Source of the DNA: Solirubrobacterales bacterium
GTDB lineage: Bacteria > Actinomycetota > Thermoleophilia > Solirubrobacterales > Solirubrobacteraceae
Reading direction: 5' to 3'
Assembly: GCA_019240115.1 (NCBI GenBank)
Contig: JAFAYV010000087.1
Span: 1 to 64,000 of the forward strand
Length of the DNA stretch: 64,000 bases
The position numbers and the translations under genes are program-made. Below are positions 17,676 through 32,099 of the stretch, in pieces; positions within the stretch are counted from its first letter, which is position 1, and each line of letters opens with the position of its first letter. The notes below the pieces were generated by a model. That model made no database searches and was not told where the DNA came from. It was given only the letters and a program-made list of their open reading frames with translations.

Positions 17676-18392
17676 TCACGCCACGTCGCTCAGCCGTGTC
17701 TCGTCCGCCGGCGCAAGGCCGTCGTGGCGGGCCACGGCACCGGCGATGCCCTGCAGGGCGGCGAACATGATCAGTCCCAGGCCGGCGCCGGTGGCGATGT
17801 ACAGCGGCCAGGGCCCCATCGCGTCGAGCAGCGAGTGGTGGATCGGCTTGCTGCGCAGGTACATGTAGTTGCCGCCGGTGATCACGTCGCCGAGGCCGGC
17901 GAGGACGGCCCAGGCGGCCGTCAGCGAGTAGACGCGCCAGATCGCGCCCGCGCGGGGGTACAGCCGGCAGCCGAAGACGAGCAGGCAGGCGCCGACGATC
18001 GCGCCCACGTGATACAGGAAGTAGGTGAAGTAGAAGACGCTCGGGAACGTCCCGGCGAGGTCAGGGGTCAACACGGCCTGCAGCGACGCCGTCAGCGACC
18101 AGAAGTACAGTGGCTCGACCAGCCGGAGGCGGCGTGTCAGCAGCGCGATGATCGCGGTCAGCGAGACGGCGTCGGTCAGCTGCAGCGGGAGGCCGGAGCG
18201 GACCGTCCACGTGCCGGTCACGAGGTCGGCGACGTACTCGCCGATCCAGCCCGCGAAGATTCCCGCGGCGAGGGCCCGGCAGACCCAGGTGATCCACGGC
18301 CCCGGTCGACGGCGGGGGGTGAGGATCGCCAGACCGCCCGCGACGATCAGCGTCGCGAGCGCTGCGAGGTGGGCAATCGAGAACTGTCGCAT
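17676..18392 (-). CDS. YwaF-like integral membrane protein (TIGR02206 type)
   Basis: The 238-residue protein has about six hydrophobic segments. The pattern SGLPLQLTDAVSLTAIIALLTRR, LYFWSLTASLQAVLTPDL, FYFTYFLYHVGAIVGACLLV and NYMYLRSKPIHHSLLDAMGPWPLYI is characteristic of the YwaF/TIGR02206 family, related to eukaryotic TMEM164. The His residue in the YHVG helix and the NYMYLR loop are typical. The function of bacterial members is not established. It stands alone, downstream of the DHA2 gene start but in the same orientation. Confidence 0.85.
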   Translation of the reverse strand: MRQFSIAHLAALATLIVAGGLAILTPRRRPGPWITWVCRALAAGIFAGWIGEYVADLVTGTWTVRSGLPLQLTDAVSLTAIIALLTRRLRLVEPLYFWSLTASLQAVLTPDLAGTFPSVFYFTYFLYHVGAIVGACLLVFGCRLYPRAGAIWRVYSLTAAWAVLAGLGDVITGGNYMYLRSKPIHHSLLDAMGPWPLYIATGAGLGLIMFAALQGIAGAVARHDGLAPADETRLSDVA

Positions 18393-23114: not shown

Positions 23115-23189
23115 CGCCACGGCAAAGCTTGAGGGCCGGCAAGGGGCCGGCCGTCGGCGGAGCGGCGAGCGCTGGGATACTCGCCCACG

Positions 23190-24338
23190 ATGGACGCGCT
23201 CGCCGCCTACGACGAGGTCACCGACGGCCTGCGGCGTCCGGTGCGCGTCGCCGAGCTCGTCTACGCCGCCGCCGAGCGATCCGGGGGCGAGCTGCCCACC
23301 CGAGCCGAGATCAACGCCGAGCGCGAGCGGCTGCAGAAGGACAAGCTCGGGCTCGAGATCGCGCAGGGCGAATTCGTCGCCCGCGTCCTCGCCGACGAAC
23401 GGCGCGGGACTCACCTGCTGCGTTCGATGGCCGAGCCGACCGCGGCGGCGCTCGCCGCCCTCCCCGAGTTCCGGCGGACCGGGGGCGCGGACCTCGGTCC
23501 GATGCGCGTCGACCGCGACGGCCCCGTGGGGACGGTGACGATCCAGAACCACGCCTATCTGAACTCCGAGGACGACGTCTCGACCGCGGCGATGGAGGTC
23601 GCGATCGACCTCGTGCTGCTCGACGACGCGATCGAGATCGGCGTCCTGCGCGGCGCCCCGGCGGTCCATGCCAAGTACGTCGGCCGGCGCATCTTCGGGG
23701 CCGGCATCAACCTCACCCACCTCTACCACGGCCGGATCGCGCTCGTCGAGTTCATGATCGAGCGCGAGCTCGGCGGGGTGCACAAGCTGTACCGCGGCCA
23801 CCCGCTCGGGGCGATCGCCGACGGCGATCTGGAGGAGCGCCGCGAGAAGCCCTGGATCGCCGCGGTGGAGAGCTTTGCCATCGGCGGCGCCTGCCAGTGG
23901 TTGCTCGTCATGGACCGCGTCGTCTCCGAGCGCGCCGCCTACTTCAACCTGCCCGCCCGCAAGGAGGGGATCGTGCCCGGCGCTGCCAACCTGCGCCTGC
24001 CGCGCTTCGTCGGCAATCGCCCGACGCGCCGCGCGATCTTCTTCAACCACGCGTTCGCCGCCGACAGCCCCGAGGGGCGCCAGCTCGCCGACGAGCTCGT
24101 CGACGACGACGCCGAGATGAGCGAGGCGATCGCCCGGGCCGCGGCCGAGCTGACGAGCGCCGGGACGATCAGCCTCGTCGCCAACCGGCGCCTGCTGCGC
24201 GCCGGCCAGGAGCCGCTGGCGGCGTTTCGCACCTACATGGCCGGATACGCGCGCGAGCAGGCGCGCTGCCTGTACTCGCCGGCGCTGATCGACAACCTCG
24301 AGCGCAACTGGGACGCGCGCAACCGCCGCACCGCCTGA
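23190..24338 (+). CDS. DpgC-like cofactor-independent dioxygenase (enoyl-CoA hydratase fold)
   Basis: This 382-residue crotonase-fold protein is closely similar to DpgC, the (3,5-dihydroxyphenyl)acetyl-CoA 1,2-dioxygenase. DpgC oxidises the aryl-acetyl-CoA with O2 and no metal or flavin, releasing the glyoxylate used for dihydroxyphenylglycine in vancomycin-type antibiotics. Diagnostic segments are HAYLNSEDDVSTAAMEVAID (Glu127), GRRIFGAGINL (Ile173), RELGGVHKLYRGHPLG (Arg192), ESFAIGGACQW (Gly233, Gln236) and LPARKEGIVPGAANLRLPR. As I recall the DpgC numbering, these align with Glu189, Ile235, Arg254, Gly296 and Gln299. The protein is a little shorter than antibiotic-cluster DpgC. No DpgA/B/D or peptide synthetase genes are nearby. 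An acyl-CoA ligase gene is convergent 18 bp away. Confidence 0.85.
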   Translation: MDALAAYDEVTDGLRRPVRVAELVYAAAERSGGELPTRAEINAERERLQKDKLGLEIAQGEFVARVLADERRGTHLLRSMAEPTAAALAALPEFRRTGGADLGPMRVDRDGPVGTVTIQNHAYLNSEDDVSTAAMEVAIDLVLLDDAIEIGVLRGAPAVHAKYVGRRIFGAGINLTHLYHGRIALVEFMIERELGGVHKLYRGHPLGAIADGDLEERREKPWIAAVESFAIGGACQWLLVMDRVVSERAAYFNLPARKEGIVPGAANLRLPRFVGNRPTRRAIFFNHAFAADSPEGRQLADELVDDDAEMSEAIARAAAELTSAGTISLVANRRLLRAGQEPLAAFRTYMAGYAREQARCLYSPALIDNLERNWDARNRRTA

Positions 24339-24356: not shown

Positions 24357-25859
24357 TCAACCGGCGTAGGTCTCGCGCAGCTCGCGCTTGAGAACCTTGC
24401 CGGCGGCCGACTTGGGCAGCGGCTCGGCGCGCAGGTGGATCGCCTTGGGCACCTTGTAGCCGGCGACGAGGGTGCGGCAGTGCGCGATGAGCTCGTCCTC
24501 GCCGACCTCGAGGGCGGGAACGACGACGGCGTGCACCGCTTCGCCCCAGCGGACGTCGGGGAGCCCGAACACCGCCGCCTCGCCGACCGCCGGGTGGCGG
24601 TGCAGAGCGTCCTCGACCTCGGTGCTGTACACATTCTCGCCGCCGGTGATGATCATGTCCTTGGCGCGGTCCACGAGGAACAGGTGCCCCGCCTCGTCGA
24701 GGTAGCCGAGGTCGCCGGTCAGATACCACCCGTCGCTGAGCGCCTCCCGCGTCTGCTCGGGCTTGCGCCAGTAGCCGCCGGTGACGTTGGCGCCGCGGAC
24801 GCGGACCTCGCCGACCTCGCCCGCCACGAGGGGCCGGCGCGCGAGGTCGACGACCTGCAGCTGCACCCCGATCGCGGGTTGGCCGCAGGAGCGTGCCCGC
24901 GGGGTCTCGAGCAGCTCCTGCTCCTCGGGGAGCAGCGTGATGATCGGCGAGGTCTCCGTCGTGCCGTAGATGTGGAGCATCGAGACGCCCGGAAACGCCT
25001 TGCGGGTTCGGTGCAGCACCTCGTCGGCGATCGGCGAGGCGCCGTGGCTGAGGTGGGTCACCGAGCTGATGTCCCGCGGGCGGCGCAGCTGCTCGGCGAC
25101 GAGCGCGTCGAGCATCGTCGGCACGGCGAAGATCGTCGTCACCGCCTCGCGGGCGACGGCGTCGAGCGCCGCCGACGCGTCGAAGCCCGGCAGGATGACG
25201 TGCTGGCCACCCGCCCACACGATCGCCAGGACGCCGATCGTCCCGCCGGCGTGGAACATCGGCGCCACCACGAGCCAGCGGGTCGCCGGGGTAAACGGCC
25301 AGCAGGTCATGAACGCGAGCGCGTTGGCGACGAGGTTGCCGTGGGTCAGCATGACGCCCTTGGCCGCGCCGGTCGTCCCGCCCGTGTAGAAGAGGCCGGC
25401 GAGGTCATCCTCGGCGGCCGGATGCCAGGGCTCCGGGGCGGCGTCGGCGAGCAGCGCGTCGGACTCCGCGCCGAGGGCGACGAACCGCTCGACGCACGCG
25501 GCGAGCGCGGCGTGCTCGGGGTCGCCGAACAGCACCCGGGTGCCGGAGTCCGCAAGCGCGTACCGCAGCTCGGGCTCGGCGTGCCGGGCGTTCAGCGGGA
25601 CGAGCACGAAGCCGCCGGCGGGCACCGCGAGGTAGAGCTCGAGATAGCGATGGCAATTGCGCCCGATGACCCCCACGCGATCGCCGCGAGAGAGCCCCAT
25701 CGCCCGCAGCGCGCCGATCAGGCGTCGCACCCGCTCGTCGAGCTCGGCGTAGGTGAGGCGGACCTCGCCACACGCCACCGCGGTCCGGCCGGCGGCGACG
25801 CTGACGCTGCGCTCCAGCGGGCCGAGAAACGTCCGGGTGACGCCGGCGGCGGTGGCCAT
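24357..25859 (-). CDS. Acyl-CoA ligase (ANL superfamily)
   Basis: Activates a carboxylic acid to its CoA thioester with ATP. The 500-residue protein shows the ANL adenylation motif LFYTGGTTGAAKGVMLTHGN, then IYGTTETSP, YLTGDLGYLDEAGHLFLVDRAKDMIITGGENVYS and the C-terminal lysine motif LPKSAAGKVLKREL. Length and order match medium/long-chain or aryl acyl-CoA ligases. Substrate cannot be read from the sequence. The convergent DpgC-like gene makes an aryl-acetic acid an interesting possibility. Its upstream region is occupied by a six-copy 18-bp repeat array (25977-26088). Confidence 0.92.
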   Translation of the reverse strand: MATAAGVTRTFLGPLERSVSVAAGRTAVACGEVRLTYAELDERVRRLIGALRAMGLSRGDRVGVIGRNCHRYLELYLAVPAGGFVLVPLNARHAEPELRYALADSGTRVLFGDPEHAALAACVERFVALGAESDALLADAAPEPWHPAAEDDLAGLFYTGGTTGAAKGVMLTHGNLVANALAFMTCWPFTPATRWLVVAPMFHAGGTIGVLAIVWAGGQHVILPGFDASAALDAVAREAVTTIFAVPTMLDALVAEQLRRPRDISSVTHLSHGASPIADEVLHRTRKAFPGVSMLHIYGTTETSPIITLLPEEQELLETPRARSCGQPAIGVQLQVVDLARRPLVAGEVGEVRVRGANVTGGYWRKPEQTREALSDGWYLTGDLGYLDEAGHLFLVDRAKDMIITGGENVYSTEVEDALHRHPAVGEAAVFGLPDVRWGEAVHAVVVPALEVGEDELIAHCRTLVAGYKVPKAIHLRAEPLPKSAAGKVLKRELRETYAG

Positions 25860-26089: not shown

Positions 26090-27058
26090 CTACGCCGGCT
26101 GGCCCGCGAACACCGGGCCGATCGCCTGGCCGGCGAGCTGCACCGCCTCGAGGTCGTCGACGTCGGGCAACGAGATCGTCATCCCCTCGATGCCGACGTC
26201 GGCCATCGCCTGTGCCCGCTCGGCGATCGTGCCGGGGTCGCCGACGATCGAGGCGTCGAGGCGGCTCTGGGGCACCCCCCGGTCGCGCAGCATCGCCGCC
26301 TTGTCCTGGGCCGCCTCGTGGGTGGAGCCGATCACGACCGAGCCCATGCCGGTCTTCGTGATCTCGGCGGGATCGCGGCCGACGGCCTCGCAGTGGCCCT
26401 CGAGCACGCCGATGAGGTGCTTGGCCCGCTCGGGATCACCGAACAGGTTGCAGCCGTCGGCGTACTGGGCGACGAGCCGCAGCGTCTTGCGCTCGCCGCT
26501 GCCGCCGACGAGGATCGGGATGTCGCCGCGGATCGGCTTGGGGTGGTTGAACGCGCCCTCCGCGCGGAAGTGCGTGCCGGCGACGGTCGTCGCCGCTTCG
26601 GTGAACATCGAGCGGCTGATCCGCAGCGCCTCCTCAAGGCGCTCGAAGCGCTCGCGCAACGGCGGGAAGTCGAAGCCATAGGCGACGTGCTCCTCCTCAA
26701 ACCAGCCGGCGCCGAGCCCGTGCCACGCGCGGCCGCCCGAGATGATGTCGATCGTGGTGGTGGTCTTGGCGGCGATCGCCGGGTTGCGATAGGTGACGCT
26801 GCCGACGAGCAGGCCGAGCGTGACCGACGAGGTCCGGGCGGCGAGACCGGCGAGGATCGTCGAGCCGTCGAGCATGTCGTTCTCGGGCGGCCCGACGGGT
26901 GGGATCTGGTGGAGGTGGTCCATGGCCGAGATCGAGCTGAAGCCCGACCGCTCGGCGGTCGTCGCGATTTCGACGAGCTTGTCGAACAGCGCGTCGGGCT
27001 CGACGCCCGGATAGGTGAAGTTGGGCAGGTGGAGATCAAGTGTGATGGGGAGGCGCAT
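26090..27058 (-). CDS. LLM-class F420-dependent oxidoreductase
   Basis: This 322-residue luciferase-like TIM-barrel protein starts MRLPITLDLHLPNFTYPGVEPDALFDKLVEIA. Family motifs are the DHL segment (ISAMDHLHQIPP), LLVGSVTYRNPAIAAKTTTTIDIISGGRAWHGLGAGWFEEEHVAYG and IPILVGGSGERKTLRLVAQYADGCNLFG. Actinobacterial members of this type use coenzyme F420 in place of FMN. ATG at 27058 is chosen by family N-terminus. It is divergent from the VOC protein gene, with a 102-bp gap, and its stop codon lies at the edge of the six-copy repeat. A second LLM enzyme is at 36057-36836. Confidence 0.9.
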   Translation of the reverse strand: MRLPITLDLHLPNFTYPGVEPDALFDKLVEIATTAERSGFSSISAMDHLHQIPPVGPPENDMLDGSTILAGLAARTSSVTLGLLVGSVTYRNPAIAAKTTTTIDIISGGRAWHGLGAGWFEEEHVAYGFDFPPLRERFERLEEALRISRSMFTEAATTVAGTHFRAEGAFNHPKPIRGDIPILVGGSGERKTLRLVAQYADGCNLFGDPERAKHLIGVLEGHCEAVGRDPAEITKTGMGSVVIGSTHEAAQDKAAMLRDRGVPQSRLDASIVGDPGTIAERAQAMADVGIEGMTISLPDVDDLEAVQLAGQAIGPVFAGQPA

Positions 27059-27160
27059 GCGATCCAGGCTAGTGCTTGGCCGCGTACTGACGGGGACCGA
27101 CCACTGGAGTCGCTCACCGGAGCGGCCACCGGTGGTCGCCGGCGCGCCAGAATGCGTCCG

Positions 27161-27502
27161 ATGGCGATCTCGGGCGTCGTGATCCGCAGACGGGTGGACG
27201 ATCTCGACTCCGCCGTCGCGTTCTACGAGCGCCTGTGCGGCCGTGCCGCGCGGCGGTTCGGCCTGCGTGGCGCCGAGCTGGCGACGGTCGGGCCGTTCCT
27301 GCTCTTCAGCGCGCCCGAGCACGTCGGCGACCGGCTCGAGAACGTCGCCGCGACCCTGACCGTCGACGACCTCGTCGCCCACGAGGCACTGCTGCGCAGC
27401 CTCGGAGCGCAGATCATCGCGCCGATCGCCGAGACCCCGAACGGCCGCCGGCTCGTCGCGCGCCATCCCGACGGAGCGGTGTTCGAGTACGTCGGCCGCT
27501 AG
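27161..27502 (+). CDS. VOC (glyoxalase/bleomycin-resistance) family protein
   Basis: The 113-residue protein forms a single vicinal-oxygen-chelate domain: VVIRRRVDDLDSAVAFYERLCG, then FLLFSAPEHVGDRLENVAATLTVDDL, and the C-terminal FEYVGR bearing a metal-ligand-like Glu. Such proteins are metalloenzymes or drug-binding proteins, and the substrate is unknown. ATG at 27161 is preferred; an in-frame ATG at 27152 would add three residues. Neither has a clear ribosome-binding site. Confidence 0.8.
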   Translation: MAISGVVIRRRVDDLDSAVAFYERLCGRAARRFGLRGAELATVGPFLLFSAPEHVGDRLENVAATLTVDDLVAHEALLRSLGAQIIAPIAETPNGRRLVARHPDGAVFEYVGR

Positions 27503-27566
27503 TGGTTGGCCCCGTGAGTACGGTCGCACCGAGAGCGCTCACCAGTGGATGCCTGGCGAGGACGCA

Positions 27567-27722: not shown

Positions 27723-28304
27723 CTAACTCGAGGCCGCGTGGGCGCGCAGCCAGGCGAGCACCTCGCCGGCGTGCCGATCGGGCGGGAACACGGGGTAGAA
27801 GACGTGCTCGATCCCGCCGTCGGCGATGACGAGCGTCAGGCGCCGCAGCAGGACGTTCCCGTCGGCCTCGAACGTCGGCAGGCGCAGCGCCTCGGTCAAC
27901 CGGCCCGCGAGGTCAGACAGCATCGGGTACGGCAGCCCGAGCCGGTCGACGGTCTCGCGCTGGTAGTCGGTCGACTGCGTCGACACCCCGGCGACGTCGG
28001 CGCCGGCCTGCGCCAGCTCCGCGTGCAGGTCGCGGAAGCCGCAGGACTCCGGGGTGCAGCCCCGCGCGCCGGGGATCTCGTCCCAGTCGGGAACCAGCGG
28101 ATCGGAGCCCGGCACGCTCATGCGCGGATAGGCGAAGACGATGGCGCGTGCGCGCGAGCCGAGCTCGTCGAGCCGGAGGTTGCCGCCGCCGCTCGACGGC
28201 AGGCTGACGTCCGGGATCGGCATCCCGACGAGGTGATCGGCCGCCCCGTCGTCCTCGGGGACCGGGAGGTCGGCGGGCAGCTCGTAGGGATCGTGCGTGG
28301 TCAT
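27723..28304 (-). CDS. Peroxiredoxin (AhpC/TSA, PrxQ-like)
   Basis: Thiol peroxidase of 193 residues. The thioredoxin-fold redoxin domain begins at HLVGMPIPDVSLPSS. The sequence IPGARGCTPESCGFRD carries the two cysteines in a CTPESC motif, the peroxidatic/resolving arrangement of PrxQ/BCP-like enzymes. DVAGVSTQSTDYQRETVDRLGLPYPMLSD is also typical. The start at 28304 (MTTHDPYELPADLP) gives the usual short N-terminal arm; an ATG at 28313 is three codons upstream. It is convergent with the VOC gene and divergent from the carboxylase operon. Likely cytoplasmic peroxide detoxification. Confidence 0.88.
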   Translation of the reverse strand: MTTHDPYELPADLPVPEDDGAADHLVGMPIPDVSLPSSGGGNLRLDELGSRARAIVFAYPRMSVPGSDPLVPDWDEIPGARGCTPESCGFRDLHAELAQAGADVAGVSTQSTDYQRETVDRLGLPYPMLSDLAGRLTEALRLPTFEADGNVLLRRLTLVIADGGIEHVFYPVFPPDRHAGEVLAWLRAHAASS

Positions 28305-28551
28305 CACGGTCATGATGACAGCCGTGCCGCCGCCTCGGGTCGTCGCGGTGGCGCCCCGCGCGACGCCTCGACGGCGCCTTCTGCGCGTCGTCGTCGACGC
28401 GGTGCGGGTCGGCGAGCGCGGCGCGGTGGCTCGGGTTCGTGTTCGCATCGACCGCATGCGCCGGCGGCCGGGTCCACGCTGGCGTCCATCCCGTGATGAG
28501 CGGTGCGCCATCATGTCCGCCCGTGCCATCGGCCCACGGTTCCCGCCCCTG

Positions 28552-30516
28552 ATGTTCGGCACGGTGCTCGTCGCCAACCGCGGCGAGATCGCGGTTCGGG
28601 TGATCCGGACGTTGCGCGCGCTCGGCATCCGCGCGGTGGCCGTGTACTCCGACGCCGACGCCGCCGCTCCCCACGTCGACCTCGCCGACGAGGCGATCCG
28701 CCTCGGCCCGGCGGCTCCGTCCGAGTCCTATCTGGCGGTCGATCGCGTGCTCCGGGCGGCGCGGCGCAGCGGCGCCGATGCGATCCATCCCGGCTACGGC
28801 TTCCTGTCGGAGAATCCGGGCTTCGCGCGCGCGTGTGAGGAGCACGGGATCGTGTTCGTCGGGCCGCCGCCGTCGGCGATGGAGCTGCTCGGCGACAAGG
28901 TGGCGGCCAAGCTCGCCGCCGAGGCGGTCGGCGTCCCGCTGCTGCCCGGCCTGCAGCGCCCCGGCTTGAGCGACGACGAGATCCTCGAGTGGGCGCGTGA
29001 CGGCGAGGATCGCTTCCCCCTGATGGTCAAGGCCGCGGCGGGGGGCGGCGGGCGCGGAATGCGGATCGTGCGCGCCGACCGCGACCTGCCCGACGCACTG
29101 GCGGCGGCGCGCCGCGAAGCCAAGGCCGGGTTCGGCGACGACGGGCTGCTCGTCGAGCGCTACGTCGAGCGCGCGCGTCACGTCGAGGTGCAGCTGATCG
29201 CGGATCGGCACGGGACCGTCCTGCATCTCGGCGAGCGCGAGTGCAGCCTGCAGCGCCGCCATCAGAAGGTGCTCGAGGAGAGCCCCTCGCCGGTCATCTC
29301 GCCCGTCGTCCGCGCTCGCCTCGGGGAAGCTGCGGTGGCGCTCGCGCGCCACGCCGGCTACGTCGGCGCCGGCACCGCCGAGTTCCTCGTGCCCGCCGAC
29401 GATCCGGCGGCGTTCGCGTTCCTCGAGGTCAACGCCCGGCTTCAGGTCGAGCATCCGGTCACCGAGTTCGTCACCGGGCTCGACCTCGTCGAATGCCAGC
29501 TGCGAATCGCCGCCGACGAGCGGCTGCCGATGACCCAGGACGACGTCGAGCTCCGCGGTCACGCGGTCGAGGTCCGGGTCTGCGCCGAGGACCCGATGGC
29601 GCGCTTCCTCCCGACGATCGGCCGCCTGACGACCTATCGCGAGCCAACCGGGCCGGGGATTCGCGTCGATAGCGGCGTCGCGCTCGGATCCCGCGTCGGC
29701 CCCGACTACGACTCGCTGCTGCTCAAGCTGATCGCCACCGGCGCCGATCGCCATGAGGCGCTCGAGCGCCTGTGGCGGGCGCTCGGGGATCTGCGGCTGC
29801 TCGGGCTGACGACGAACGCCGGGTATCTCGCGCGGCTCGTGGCCAGCTCCGAGGTCAGCGCCGGGGAGATGGACACCGGGCTGCTCGAGCGAGGTGTCGT
29901 CGCCGCCGCGCCCGACGCGGCGCAGGCTCGGGAGGCGGCAATCGCCACCGCCGCAACGCGGAGCTTGACCCTCGGTGGCCCCGACCCCTGGGAGGGGCTG
30001 CCGGGATGGCGAGTGACCGGCGACGTGCCGGTCACCTACGAGCTGGCGCCGGTCGGTGACGGAGATACGGTCGTCGTCGAGATCGCCGGCGATCGGGTCC
30101 GCGTCGGCGAGCACGAGGCGTCGCTGCAGGTGGACACGATTGATCCCGGCCGGGTCCGCATCGCCCTCGATGGGCGCGCGCGCGTGTGGGACCACGCGTC
30201 GGTCGACGGGGAGCTGTGGGTGTCGGCGGGCTCCGACGCGTTCGCCCACCGCGTGGTCGAGCCGGTCGTCCAGGACGCGGCAGCGGTCGCCGGCGGCGAG
30301 ATCGACGCGCCGATGCCGGGCTCGGTGCTGTCGATCAACGTCGCCGCCGGCGACCGGGTGGCCGAGGGCGATCTCCTGCTCGTCGTCGAGTCGATGAAGA
30401 TGGAGCTGGCCCTCACCGCCCCCGCCGACGCCGAGGTGACCGCGGTCATCGTCTCGGTCGGGGATCACGTGACCCGCGGACAGGCGCTCGTCGAGCTCGA
30501 TGTGGCCGAGTCATGA
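28552..30516 (+). CDS. Acyl-CoA carboxylase alpha subunit (biotin carboxylase + BCCP)
   Basis: This 654-residue protein carboxylates its own biotin with ATP and bicarbonate. The biotin carboxylase domain begins [21 protein letters not shown], includes [10 protein letters not shown], the ATP-grasp loop [14 protein letters not shown] and [25 protein letters not shown]. The C-terminal biotinyl domain carries ESMKME with biotinyl Lys616. It is coupled by ATGA to the carboxyltransferase gene. Size and partner match 3-methylcrotonyl- or related acyl-CoA carboxylases (leucine/isoprenoid catabolism). Propionyl/acetyl specificity is less likely given the beta subunit. The frame stays open 85 codons upstream of 28552, but only the chosen start matches the family N-terminus. 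Confidence 0.92.
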
Positions 30517-32099
30517 GCGTCATCCTGCGCTCGAGCGCCGACCCGAACAGTGAGGGGTTCGCCGCCAACCAGGCCGCGCACACCGAGCTCGGCGCCGATC
30601 TGGACCGTCAGTTCGCGCGCGTGCTCGCCGGCGGTGGCGAGCGCGCCGCCGAGCGGCACCTCTCGCGGGGCAAGCTGCTGCCCCGCGACCGCGTCGACCG
30701 CCTGCTCGATCGCGGCTCGCCGTTCCTCGAGCTCTCCACGCTCGCCGCCCACGGCATGTATGACGACGAGGCGCCGGGCGCCGGGATCATCACCGGGATC
30801 GGGCGGATCGCCGGGCGCGAAGTGATGATCGTCTGCAACGACGCCACGGTGAAGGGCGGCTCGTACTTCCCGATGACCGCCCGCAAGCACACGCGGGCGC
30901 AGGAGATCGCCCGCCAGAACCGCCTGCCGTGCGTCTACCTCGTCGACTCCGGCGGCGCCTTCCTCCCGCTCCAGGACGAGCTGTTCCCCGACGTGCGCGG
31001 CTTCGGCCAGGTGTTCTACAACCAGGCGAACATGTCGGCGGAGGGCATCGCGCAGATCGCGGCGGTACTCGGCTCCTGCACCGCCGGCGGCGCCTACGTC
31101 CCGGCGATGTCCGACGAGGTCGTGATCGTCCGTGAGCAGGGGACGATCTTCCTCGGCGGCCCGCCGCTGGTGCAGGCGGCGACCGGCGAGACCGTTACCG
31201 CCGAGGAGCTCGGCGGCGGCGATCTGCACGCCCGGCGCTCGGGGGTGGCCGACCATCTCGCCGTCGACGACGCCGACGCCCTGGCGATCGTGCGCTCGAT
31301 CGTGGCCACGCTCCCGCCCAAGCCGCCGGTGCCGTGGGAGACAAGGACGCCGGAGCCGCCGGCAGTCGACGTCGCTTCGCTGACCGGCGCGGTGCCCGCC
31401 GACCTGCGCACGCCCTACGACCCGCGGGAGATCATCGCCCGGCTCGTCGACGGCTCTCGCTTTCACGAGTTCAAGGCCAACTACGGGACGACGCTCGTCT
31501 GCGGCTTCGCGCATCTGCACGGGCACGCGGTGGGGATCCTCGGCAACGAGGGGGTGCTGTTCTCCGACAGCGCGCTGAAGGGCGCGCACTTCGTCGAGCT
31601 CTGCGACCAGCGCGGGATCCCGCTCATCTTCCTGCAGAACATCACCGGCTTCATGGTCGGCACCGACGCCGAGGCGGGCGGGATCGCCAAGGATGGGGCC
31701 AAGATGGTTGCCGCCGTGTCGGTCACCCGCGTCCCCCGCCTGACCGTCATCGTCGGCGGATCCTTCGGCGCCGGCAACTACGGGATGAGCGGGCGGCCGT
31801 ACTTCCCGCGCTTCCTCTGGATGTGGCCGAACGCGCGGATCTCGGTGATGGGCGGAGACCAGGCGGCCAACGTCCTGACGGCCGTCGGGCGCGAGCGCGA
31901 CCCCGAGGCGATCGAGGCCCGCAAGCGCGAGATCCGTGCGCAGTACGAAACCCAGGGCCATCCCTATTACGCCTCGGCGCGGCTGTGGGACGACGGGGTC
32001 ATCCACCCGCGCGACACGCGCGACGTCCTCGGCCTGGCGTTGGGAGCGTGCGCCAACGCTCCCCTCGGCGAGCGGCGCAAGCCCGTGTTTCGTATGTGA
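30513..32099 (+). CDS. Acyl-CoA carboxylase beta subunit, methylcrotonyl-CoA type
   Basis: Carboxyltransferase of 528 residues that moves CO2 from biotin on the alpha subunit to an acyl-CoA. Segments typical of MccB are [106 protein letters not shown] and [14 protein letters not shown]. These match methylcrotonyl-CoA carboxylase more than propionyl-CoA carboxylase. The start overlaps the alpha-subunit stop (ATGA), ensuring stoichiometric synthesis. No hydratase, isovaleryl-CoA dehydrogenase or HMG-CoA lyase is in the window, so the leucine-pathway role is by family only. Confidence 0.92.

What the first reader, a model, noticed from the sequence alone, without database searches (positions are those of the whole stretch)
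23190..24338. Stand-alone DpgC-like cofactor-free dioxygenase outside a glycopeptide cluster
All active-site features I can align by eye to DpgC (Glu, Ile/Gly oxyanion positions, Arg, Gln) are kept, but no DpgA/B/D or peptide synthetase genes lie nearby. An acyl-CoA ligase is convergent 18 bp away. Together they might activate and oxidise an aryl-acetate, a catabolic or novel biosynthetic use of this rare O2 chemistry.
Basis: partly seen in the sequence, partly recalled or inferred. Interest (0 to 1): 0.58.

Follow-up and report, generated by a model that had tools for sequence, protein, structure and literature searches.

The report
Stand-alone DpgC-family aryl-acetyl-CoA dioxygenase
A soil bacterium carries, outside any antibiotic gene cluster, a relative of the cofactor-free oxygen-using enzyme from vancomycin-type antibiotic synthesis, beside a gene that probably makes its CoA substrate; relatives are common in soil bacteria, often beside a phenylacetate-activating gene, so this chemistry is probably also used to break down aromatic acids.

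Summary
Window 23190-24338 (+) encodes a 382-aa DpgC homologue (45% identity by fold match to solved DpgC), with Glu, Ile/Gly oxyanion, Arg and Gln positions kept, and a convergent AMP-forming acyl-CoA ligase 18 bp away. It is not DpgC itself: it scores 363 bits against a curated cut-off of 530, the genome has no detectable type III PKS (DpgA), and it lacks about 60 N-terminal residues. In the tree it sits inside the DpgC superclade, far from enoyl-CoA hydratases, in an 81-row clade (support 100) of mostly stand-alone proteins from many phyla. That clade is not rare: at least 470 loci encode relatives. A phenylacetate-CoA-ligase-like gene lies within 4 kb in 33 of 85 loci, against 1 of 63 in a 5-9 kb control zone. 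The window's own ligase has an orthologue 10 bp upstream of dpgC on the same strand in one relative, and another beside the paa (phenylacetate) operon in Actinomycetospora. A sister group matches the pristinamycin phenylglycine operon (PglA). Best reading: an aryl-acetyl-CoA, most likely phenylacetyl-CoA, 1,2-dioxygenase in a catabolic route to arylglyoxylate. Chemistry and substrate are inferred, not shown.

The parts
23190..24338 (+). DpgC-family (crotonase fold) putative aryl-acetyl-CoA 1,2-dioxygenase, 382 aa
   Evidence: NCBIfam NF042432 E 2.4e-108 below cut-off; PDB DpgC E 2.3e-83; tree; fold search
23568..23570 (+). Codon of E127 (DpgC E189)
   Evidence: alignment numbering; E in 79 of 80 relatives
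23706..23708 (+). Codon of I173 (DpgC I235, oxyanion position; role recalled)
23763..23765 (+). Codon of R192 (DpgC R254; R254K is a solved mutant, 2pg8)
   Evidence: R in 77 of 80 relatives
23886..23897 (+). Codons of G233-A-C-Q236 (DpgC G296 to Q299: oxyanion Gly and conserved Gln)
23955..23960 (+). Codons of A256-R257 (DpgC A319-A320; A319 kept, A320 to R typical of the stand-alone clade)
   Evidence: R in 69 of 74 stand-alone rows, A in 21 of 21 DpgC-type rows
24357..25859 (-). AMP-forming acyl-CoA ligase, 500 aa; likely phenylacetate (aryl-acetate)-CoA ligase of FadD type, not PaaK family
   Evidence: Pfam PF00501 E 9.4e-85; NCBIfam PRK06187 464.6 bits, cut-off 476; orthologue next to dpgC in L038; orthologue next to paaA/C/E/Z in L179

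Best explanation
The gene encodes a cofactor-free, O2-dependent aryl-acetyl-CoA 1,2-dioxygenase of the DpgC/PglA family, used in catabolism rather than antibiotic synthesis. The neighbouring ligase (or another source) makes the thioester from an aryl-acetate, most likely phenylacetate. The crotonase oxyanion hole (backbone of I173 and G233) stabilises the enolate, triplet O2 bound in a hydrophobic pocket (L175, A256, I261, P263, L366) attacks the alpha carbon, and peroxide attack on the thioester releases CoA and the arylglyoxylate. The 2-oxoacid is then drained elsewhere, for example by a ThDP enzyme such as the one on contig C32. Shown: homology, fold, conserved residues, clade, partner-gene linkage. 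Inferred: oxygenase activity, substrate, pathway direction and drain enzyme. The mechanism is that of DpgC, recalled from the literature.
For: Full-length DpgC homology and fold. Catalytic positions kept in 77-80 of 80 relatives: E189 79, R254 77, G296 80, Q299 80, A319 80; I235 is I in 71 and V in 8. Tree apart from ECHs. PaaK-like gene within 4 kb in 33 of 85 loci vs 1 of 63 loci in the 5-9 kb zone, Fisher p 1.5e-8; after thinning to 68 representatives, 28 of 68 vs 1 of 51; paired test 18 vs 1, p 8e-5. PaaK-like genes occur downstream, upstream and divergent, so the pairing does not rest on one inherited arrangement. Window ligase orthologues: L038, co-directional, 10 bp, and the paa operon of Actinomycetospora. 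Other makers of aryl-acetyl-CoA sit beside other family members: type III PKS, PDH E1 alpha/beta in the pglA-like operon, indolepyruvate oxidoreductase in Pseudonocardia, 2 bp from dpgC. ThDP decarboxylase-type or thioesterase genes beside some, matching the published use of VemE after VemC (passage of PMC5132015). The genome has a ThDP enzyme 56% and a cyclase 56% identical to those directly upstream of the dpgC-paaK pair in L037.
Against: No assay. The generic AMP-ligase class is not enriched near these genes (16 of 85 near vs 11 of 63 far), and the window ligase's orthologue is absent from 8 of 12 dpgC genomes, nearest relatives included. 19 of 51 representatives with both flanks have no aryl-acetyl-CoA maker nearby by this measure. 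R257 in place of the DpgC alanine beside the O2-pocket alanine could mean another substrate or reaction. From recall, published work on DpgC found that ring hydroxyls are needed for its oxygenation; phenylacetyl-CoA lacks them. The genome also has PaaA/PaaC-like genes below cut-off, so another phenylacetyl-CoA route may exist. The ThDP enzyme on C32 is not linked to the window gene.
Confidence: 0.6

Rival explanations
1. Same oxygenase chemistry, but the substrate is a substituted aryl-acetyl-CoA (hydroxyphenylacetyl-, aminophenylacetyl- or indole-3-acetyl-CoA) rather than phenylacetyl-CoA.
For: E189 and R254, recalled as contacting a ring hydroxyl in DpgC, are kept; R at position 320 and T at 238 are typical of the clade. 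Contig C32 of the same genome joins a PF04199 cyclase, ThDP enzyme, PaaX-like regulator and a salicylyl-CoA-5-hydroxylase-type gene, and L037 has cyclase and ThDP genes directly upstream of dpgC. Indolepyruvate oxidoreductase is near dpgC in 7 loci.
Against: E189 and R254 are also kept in the pglA-like enzymes, whose substrate is thought to be phenylacetyl-CoA, so they do not point to a hydroxyl. The cyclase next to dpgC was seen in 1 of 85 loci. The ligase links point to phenylacetate.
Confidence: 0.3
2. A crotonase-fold enzyme that kept the DpgC scaffold but has a non-oxygenase reaction (hydrolase, isomerase or hydratase on an acyl-CoA).
For: Crotonase-superfamily reactions are diverse; A320 to R, V425 to L, A298 to C and N396 to R changes; score below the DpgC cut-off.
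Against: O2-pocket positions L237, A319, I324 and P326 and the catalytic E/R/Q are kept; V425 is L also in the pglA-like group; the etamycin-type group in NRPS clusters lies inside the same 18-row clade.
Confidence: 0.12
3. A leftover or newly acquired biosynthetic gene that supplies an arylglyoxylate or arylglycine building block to an unlinked cluster.
For: The same clade contains Streptomyces proteins encoded in NRPS clusters with aminotransferase and ligase genes; the window gene is not in the clade of its genus-mates.
Against: No NRPS, PKS or aminotransferase among the neighbours annotated; no type III PKS in the genome; relatives in many phyla stand outside such clusters.
Confidence: 0.08
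4. Ordinary enoyl-CoA hydratase.
For: Pfam ECH_1 match, E 1.1e-9, and the generic names that public records give ('enoyl-CoA hydratase/isomerase family protein').
Against: The four ECHs fall outside the 96 DpgC-family rows, support 100; DpgC chains match at E 1e-38 vs 3e-12 for the next chain.
Confidence: 0.02

Closest known systems
DpgC, (3,5-dihydroxyphenyl)acetyl-CoA 1,2-dioxygenase (PDB 2np9, 5kag, 4ylh; NCBIfam NF042432)
   Same: Fold, 45% identity, E189/I235/R254/G296/Q299/A319 positions
   Different: Below curated cut-off; no type III PKS linkage; K238 to T, A320 to R, N396 to R, V425 to L; lacks about 60 N-terminal residues
PglA, 'Phg dioxygenase/dehydrogenase' of pristinamycin phenylglycine synthesis; assigned to this family here by operon order only
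   Same: DpgC family, T238, L425, phenylacetyl-CoA as proposed substrate (passages of PMC7089894)
   Different: Sits in an NRPS cluster with PDH E1, thioesterase, MbtH and aminotransferase genes; 46.6-48.1% identity to the window protein
Etamycin-type Streptomyces DpgC-family proteins (L060-L064)
   Same: Same 18-row clade, 51-54% identity
   Different: Next to NRPS, DegT aminotransferase and adenylating ligase genes; G at position 320. That S. griseoviridis makes etamycin is recalled
VemC/VemE (venemycin pathway)
   Same: DpgC homologue followed by a ThDP decarboxylase of the arylglyoxylate (passage of PMC5132015)
   Different: Biosynthetic and DpgA-fed
Anaerobic phenylacetyl-CoA alpha-oxidation to phenylglyoxylate (Thauera/Aromatoleum; recalled)
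   Same: Same overall conversion of the side chain
   Different: That route uses a metal enzyme and no O2; the route proposed here uses O2 and no cofactor

Membership tests
DpgC equivalog (NF042432) | Curated score of 530 bits | tested here: not met
   363.1 bits
DpgC equivalog (NF042432) | Catalytic and oxyanion residues E189, I235, R254, G296, Q299 | tested here: met
   (roles recalled)
DpgC equivalog (NF042432) | Hydrophobic O2 pocket around A319 and V425 | tested here: inconclusive
   A319 kept, V425 is L, neighbour A320 is R
DpgC equivalog (NF042432) | Type III PKS (DpgA) gene next to it | tested here: not met
   0 PF00195 matches in the genome; in 14 genomes taken for comparison, 9 of 9 genes over the cut-off had one within 3 kb, 8 of 9 genes under it had none within 100 kb on the same contig
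DpgC equivalog (NF042432) | N-terminal helical segment (DpgC residues 1 to about 62) | tested here: not met
   ORF begins at about DpgC 63; in-frame stop 60 nt upstream; short forms also in L037, L038, L065, L075
DpgC equivalog (NF042432) | Cofactor- and metal-free dioxygenation of DPA-CoA | not testable with these tools
   needs enzyme assay
DpgC/PglA superclade of the crotonase superfamily | Groups with DpgC to the exclusion of ECHs | tested here: met
   96 rows, support 100 (SH-aLRT, quick search), 4 ECH outgroup
PglA-type phenylacetyl-CoA dioxygenase | Operon with PDH E1, thioesterase and aminotransferase | tested here: not met
   neighbours are FIST and ligase
PaaK phenylacetate-CoA ligase (for the neighbour ligase) | Match to TIGR02155 | tested here: not met
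   not among the 25 best NCBIfam families shown for P0002; best is PRK06187, 464.6 of 476 bits
Ordinary enoyl-CoA hydratase | Phylogenetic placement among ECHs | tested here: not met

The most novel reading that the evidence does not exclude
A widespread, undescribed aerobic alpha-oxidation route for phenylacetate and like acids in soil bacteria: CoA ligase (PaaK- or FadD-type) or indolepyruvate oxidoreductase makes aryl-acetyl-CoA, a DpgC-clade enzyme oxidises it with O2 and no cofactor to arylglyoxylate, and a ThDP decarboxylase or 2-oxoacid oxidoreductase takes it to the aldehyde or aroyl-CoA. It would be an O2-dependent counterpart of the anaerobic phenylglyoxylate route, and an alternative to the PaaABCDE epoxidase.
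Probability: 0.42. Interest if true: 0.75.

Novelty: new variant of a known kind. Interest (0 to 1): 0.55.

Why it matters
Cofactor-free use of O2 is rare and debated chemistry, studied in this family chiefly on one antibiotic enzyme. A large clade of relatives in uncultivated and culturable soil bacteria, tied to aryl-acetate activation, would make it part of ordinary carbon turnover. It would also give many natural variants (A320 to R, K238 to T, V425 to L) for testing how the pocket controls substrate and O2. Databases call these genes enoyl-CoA hydratase/isomerase, so the function would be missed.

Tried and rejected
The LLM flavin-oxidoreductase gene next to the ligase (in 26090-27529, -) looked like a third shared neighbour with L038, but it is only 36% identical and is the third-best own-genome match of the L038 gene, so it was rejected as an orthologue. 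Generic AMP ligases near dpgC are not enriched; only the orthology argument and the PaaK-like class count. An isatin/indole-acetate pathway built on the PF04199 cyclase and ThDP genes was considered (paper listing only): cyclase beside dpgC in 1 of 85 loci, so kept only as a rival. Absence of the phenylacetyl-CoA epoxidase in this genome cannot be claimed: two matches lie below the cut-off.

Errors and drops. First tree held one wrongly extracted outgroup row (ECH_L003, a wrong-strand ORF); it was rebuilt without it, with two other ECHs. Rows dropped before the tree: L042, L046, L058 (near copies or fragment), L160 (copy of L063), L021 (copy of L066). Loci from the genome search keep genome orientation; my extraction took + strand ORFs only, so 18 of 29 Streptomyces loci L127-L155 entered the residue counts, and L016 and L019 did not. 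The 21 rows called DpgA-linked in that script are DpgC of the PDB, L017, L168 and these 18; only part of their genomes were checked for the PKS gene. Three of four rows were translated on the wrong strand and say nothing. The 80 loci are those most like the window, not a random sample.

Full report
What is there. The ORF at 23190-24338 (+) codes for 382 residues. Its best NCBIfam family is DpgC (E 2.4e-108) but at 363 bits, below the 530-bit cut-off. In the PDB the best five sequences are all DpgC (E about 1e-82 to 1e-83), the next an enoyl-CoA hydratase at 1e-12. A model built from 14 aligned family members (pLDDT 80, pTM 0.86) matches DpgC chains first, ranks 1-19, then ordinary crotonases. 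The gene is divergent from a FIST-domain gene (21918 to about 23100, -) and convergent, 18 bp apart, with an AMP-forming ligase. It is therefore monocistronic here, or nearly so.

Active site. With the PDB chain as ruler, E189, I235, R254, G296, Q299, L237, A319, I324 and P326 are all kept (E127, I173, R192, G233, Q236, L175, A256, I261, P263), and V425 is L366. PDB titles mark A319, V425 and R254 as positions tested in mutants; the roles of the others are recalled. Columns that set the stand-alone rows apart from the DpgC-type rows: K238 to T (74 of 74 vs 0 of 21), A320 to R (69 of 74 vs 0 of 21), N396 to R (74 of 74 vs 1 of 21), A298 to C (73 of 74 vs 1 of 21), V425 to L (66 of 74 vs 0 of 21). 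T238 and L425 are shared with the four pglA-like rows, while R320 is not (they have M). The window shares the stretch GACQW with L035, L037, L038 and L039.

How common. In the window's own genus, 8 of 27 other genomes have a match at E <= 1e-30. In a draw of 296 genomes across the phylum only 3 matched at E <= 1e-40, so the spread is patchy.

Tree. With four enoyl-CoA hydratases as outgroup, all 96 family rows are one side of a branch (support 100). An 81-row clade (100) holds the window, the other stand-alone rows and five Streptomyces rows of NRPS clusters, and leaves out all seven rows of the DpgC group and all eight other Streptomyces rows. The window lies in an 18-row clade (99) with Chloroflexota/Actinomycetota/Myxococcota MAGs, Pseudonocardiaceae and the five Streptomyces rows. 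The genus-mates fall in another clade, so the window copy is not their simple orthologue; transfer or differential loss is likely. Support values are SH-aLRT from a quick search.

Neighbours. Clustering neighbour genes over 86 loci showed one dominant partner, a PaaK-like ligase, two of which score 455 and 507 bits against TIGR02155 (cut-off 646). Counted with tblastn it lies within 4 kb in 33 of 85 loci, but at 5-9 kb in only 1 of 63 loci with such flank. Thinned at 85% identity: 28 of 68 vs 1 of 51; paired 18 to 1. It is found downstream, upstream on the same strand, and divergent. AMP ligases in general are not enriched (16 of 85 vs 11 of 63). ThDP enzymes (6 of 85 vs 0 of 63), FlK-type thioesterases (4 of 85 vs 0 of 63) and indolepyruvate oxidoreductases (6 of 85 vs 2 of 63) are minor partners. 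Of 51 representatives with both flanks, 32 have one of the presumed aryl-acetyl-CoA makers close by and 19 do not.

The window's own ligase. In L038 (61% identical dpgC) the ligase gene ends 10 bp before dpgC on the same strand. It is 60% identical to the window ligase, and of 24 AMP-ligase matches in the window genome the window ligase is the best by 640 to 316 bits. Orientation differs, yet the two genes stay together: good evidence of a working pair. In 12 dpgC-bearing genomes, 4 have a ligase match at E <= 1e-100 and only 2 at 60% or more: L038's genome and Actinomycetospora succinea. In the latter no dpgC was found in the 18 kb around it; it lies next to genes for PaaA, PaaC, PaaE and PaaZ, all over their curated cut-offs. 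So this ligase type probably activates phenylacetate. Against this, the closest dpgC relatives (L035, L036) lack it.

Precedents. In Streptomyces xanthii and Streptomyces sp. NBC_01361, DpgC-family genes sit in the order NRPS, DpgC-like, E1 alpha (or ThDP-dependent enzyme), E1 beta, alpha/beta hydrolase, MbtH, aminotransferase. That is the order described for pristinamycin pglA-E with mbtY (passages of PMC7089894), whose pglA is needed for pristinamycin I and is rescued by phenylglycine (passages of PMC10685826). I therefore place PglA in this family by synteny; its own sequence was not compared. The Vem pathway uses a DpgC homologue and then a ThDP decarboxylase (passage of PMC5132015). DpgC also occurs in Xanthomonas biosynthetic loci (passages of PMC3849588). 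In the genomes tested, genes above the DpgC cut-off had a type III PKS within 3 kb in 9 of 9 cases; 8 of 9 below it did not, the exception being a tandem copy beside a true dpgC.

Possible drain. The window genome has on contig C32 a ThDP enzyme (56%) and a PF04199 cyclase (56%) like those directly upstream of dpgC-paaK in L037, with a PaaK-like ligase, a PaaX-like regulator (147 bits, cut-off 265) and a bifunctional salicylyl-CoA 5-hydroxylase/oxidoreductase (1132 bits, cut-off 1078). That this cluster handles the product is a guess.

Literature. Searches of the held open papers listed no paper whose title, abstract start or passages read describe stand-alone DpgC-like enzymes in catabolism; subscription papers are mostly not held, so this is weak evidence of novelty.

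Verdict. It is a member of a large, apparently undescribed clade, not a singular oddity. The chemistry and substrate are inferred by homology and gene linkage and are directly testable.

Noticed in passing
L171 (S. xanthii, NZ_CP061282.1 179330-180742) and L172: Records call the gene 'enoyl-CoA hydratase/isomerase family protein', but operon order equals pristinamycin pglA-E, so PglA is likely a DpgC-family oxygenase; the literature calls it dehydrogenase or dioxygenase.
   Followed up: partly
L156 5893-17289 (own genome, contig C32): Cluster of PaaK-like ligase, PF04199 cyclase, ThDP enzyme, PaaX-like regulator, acyl-CoA dehydrogenase and bifunctional salicylyl-CoA 5-hydroxylase-type gene: a possible aromatic-acid catabolic island.
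   Followed up: partly
L180 6423-15919 (own genome, contig C46): PaaA/PaaC-like oxygenase genes below the curated cut-off with two aldehyde dehydrogenase-like and two enoyl-CoA hydratase-like ORFs: a divergent Paa-like operon.
   Followed up: partly
L163 9439-12882: Two DpgC-family genes in tandem, one DpgC-like beside a type III PKS and one pglA-like beside PDH-type genes.
   Followed up: no
L045 6196-11134, also L043, L046, L056: Fused indolepyruvate ferredoxin oxidoreductase gene ends 1-2 bp (L045) before the dpgC-like gene: a likely coupled pair.
   Followed up: partly
window 23172-23190: A GATACT hexamer stands close before the ATG with no clear Shine-Dalgarno; the mRNA may be leaderless.
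   Followed up: no
window 17676-18392 (-): TMEM164-family membrane protein (PF14808, E 2e-37), in a family named after a eukaryotic protein.
   Followed up: no
window 28297-32099 (+): Biotin carboxylase/BCCP fusion followed by a carboxyltransferase gene: an acyl-CoA carboxylase pair.
   Followed up: no
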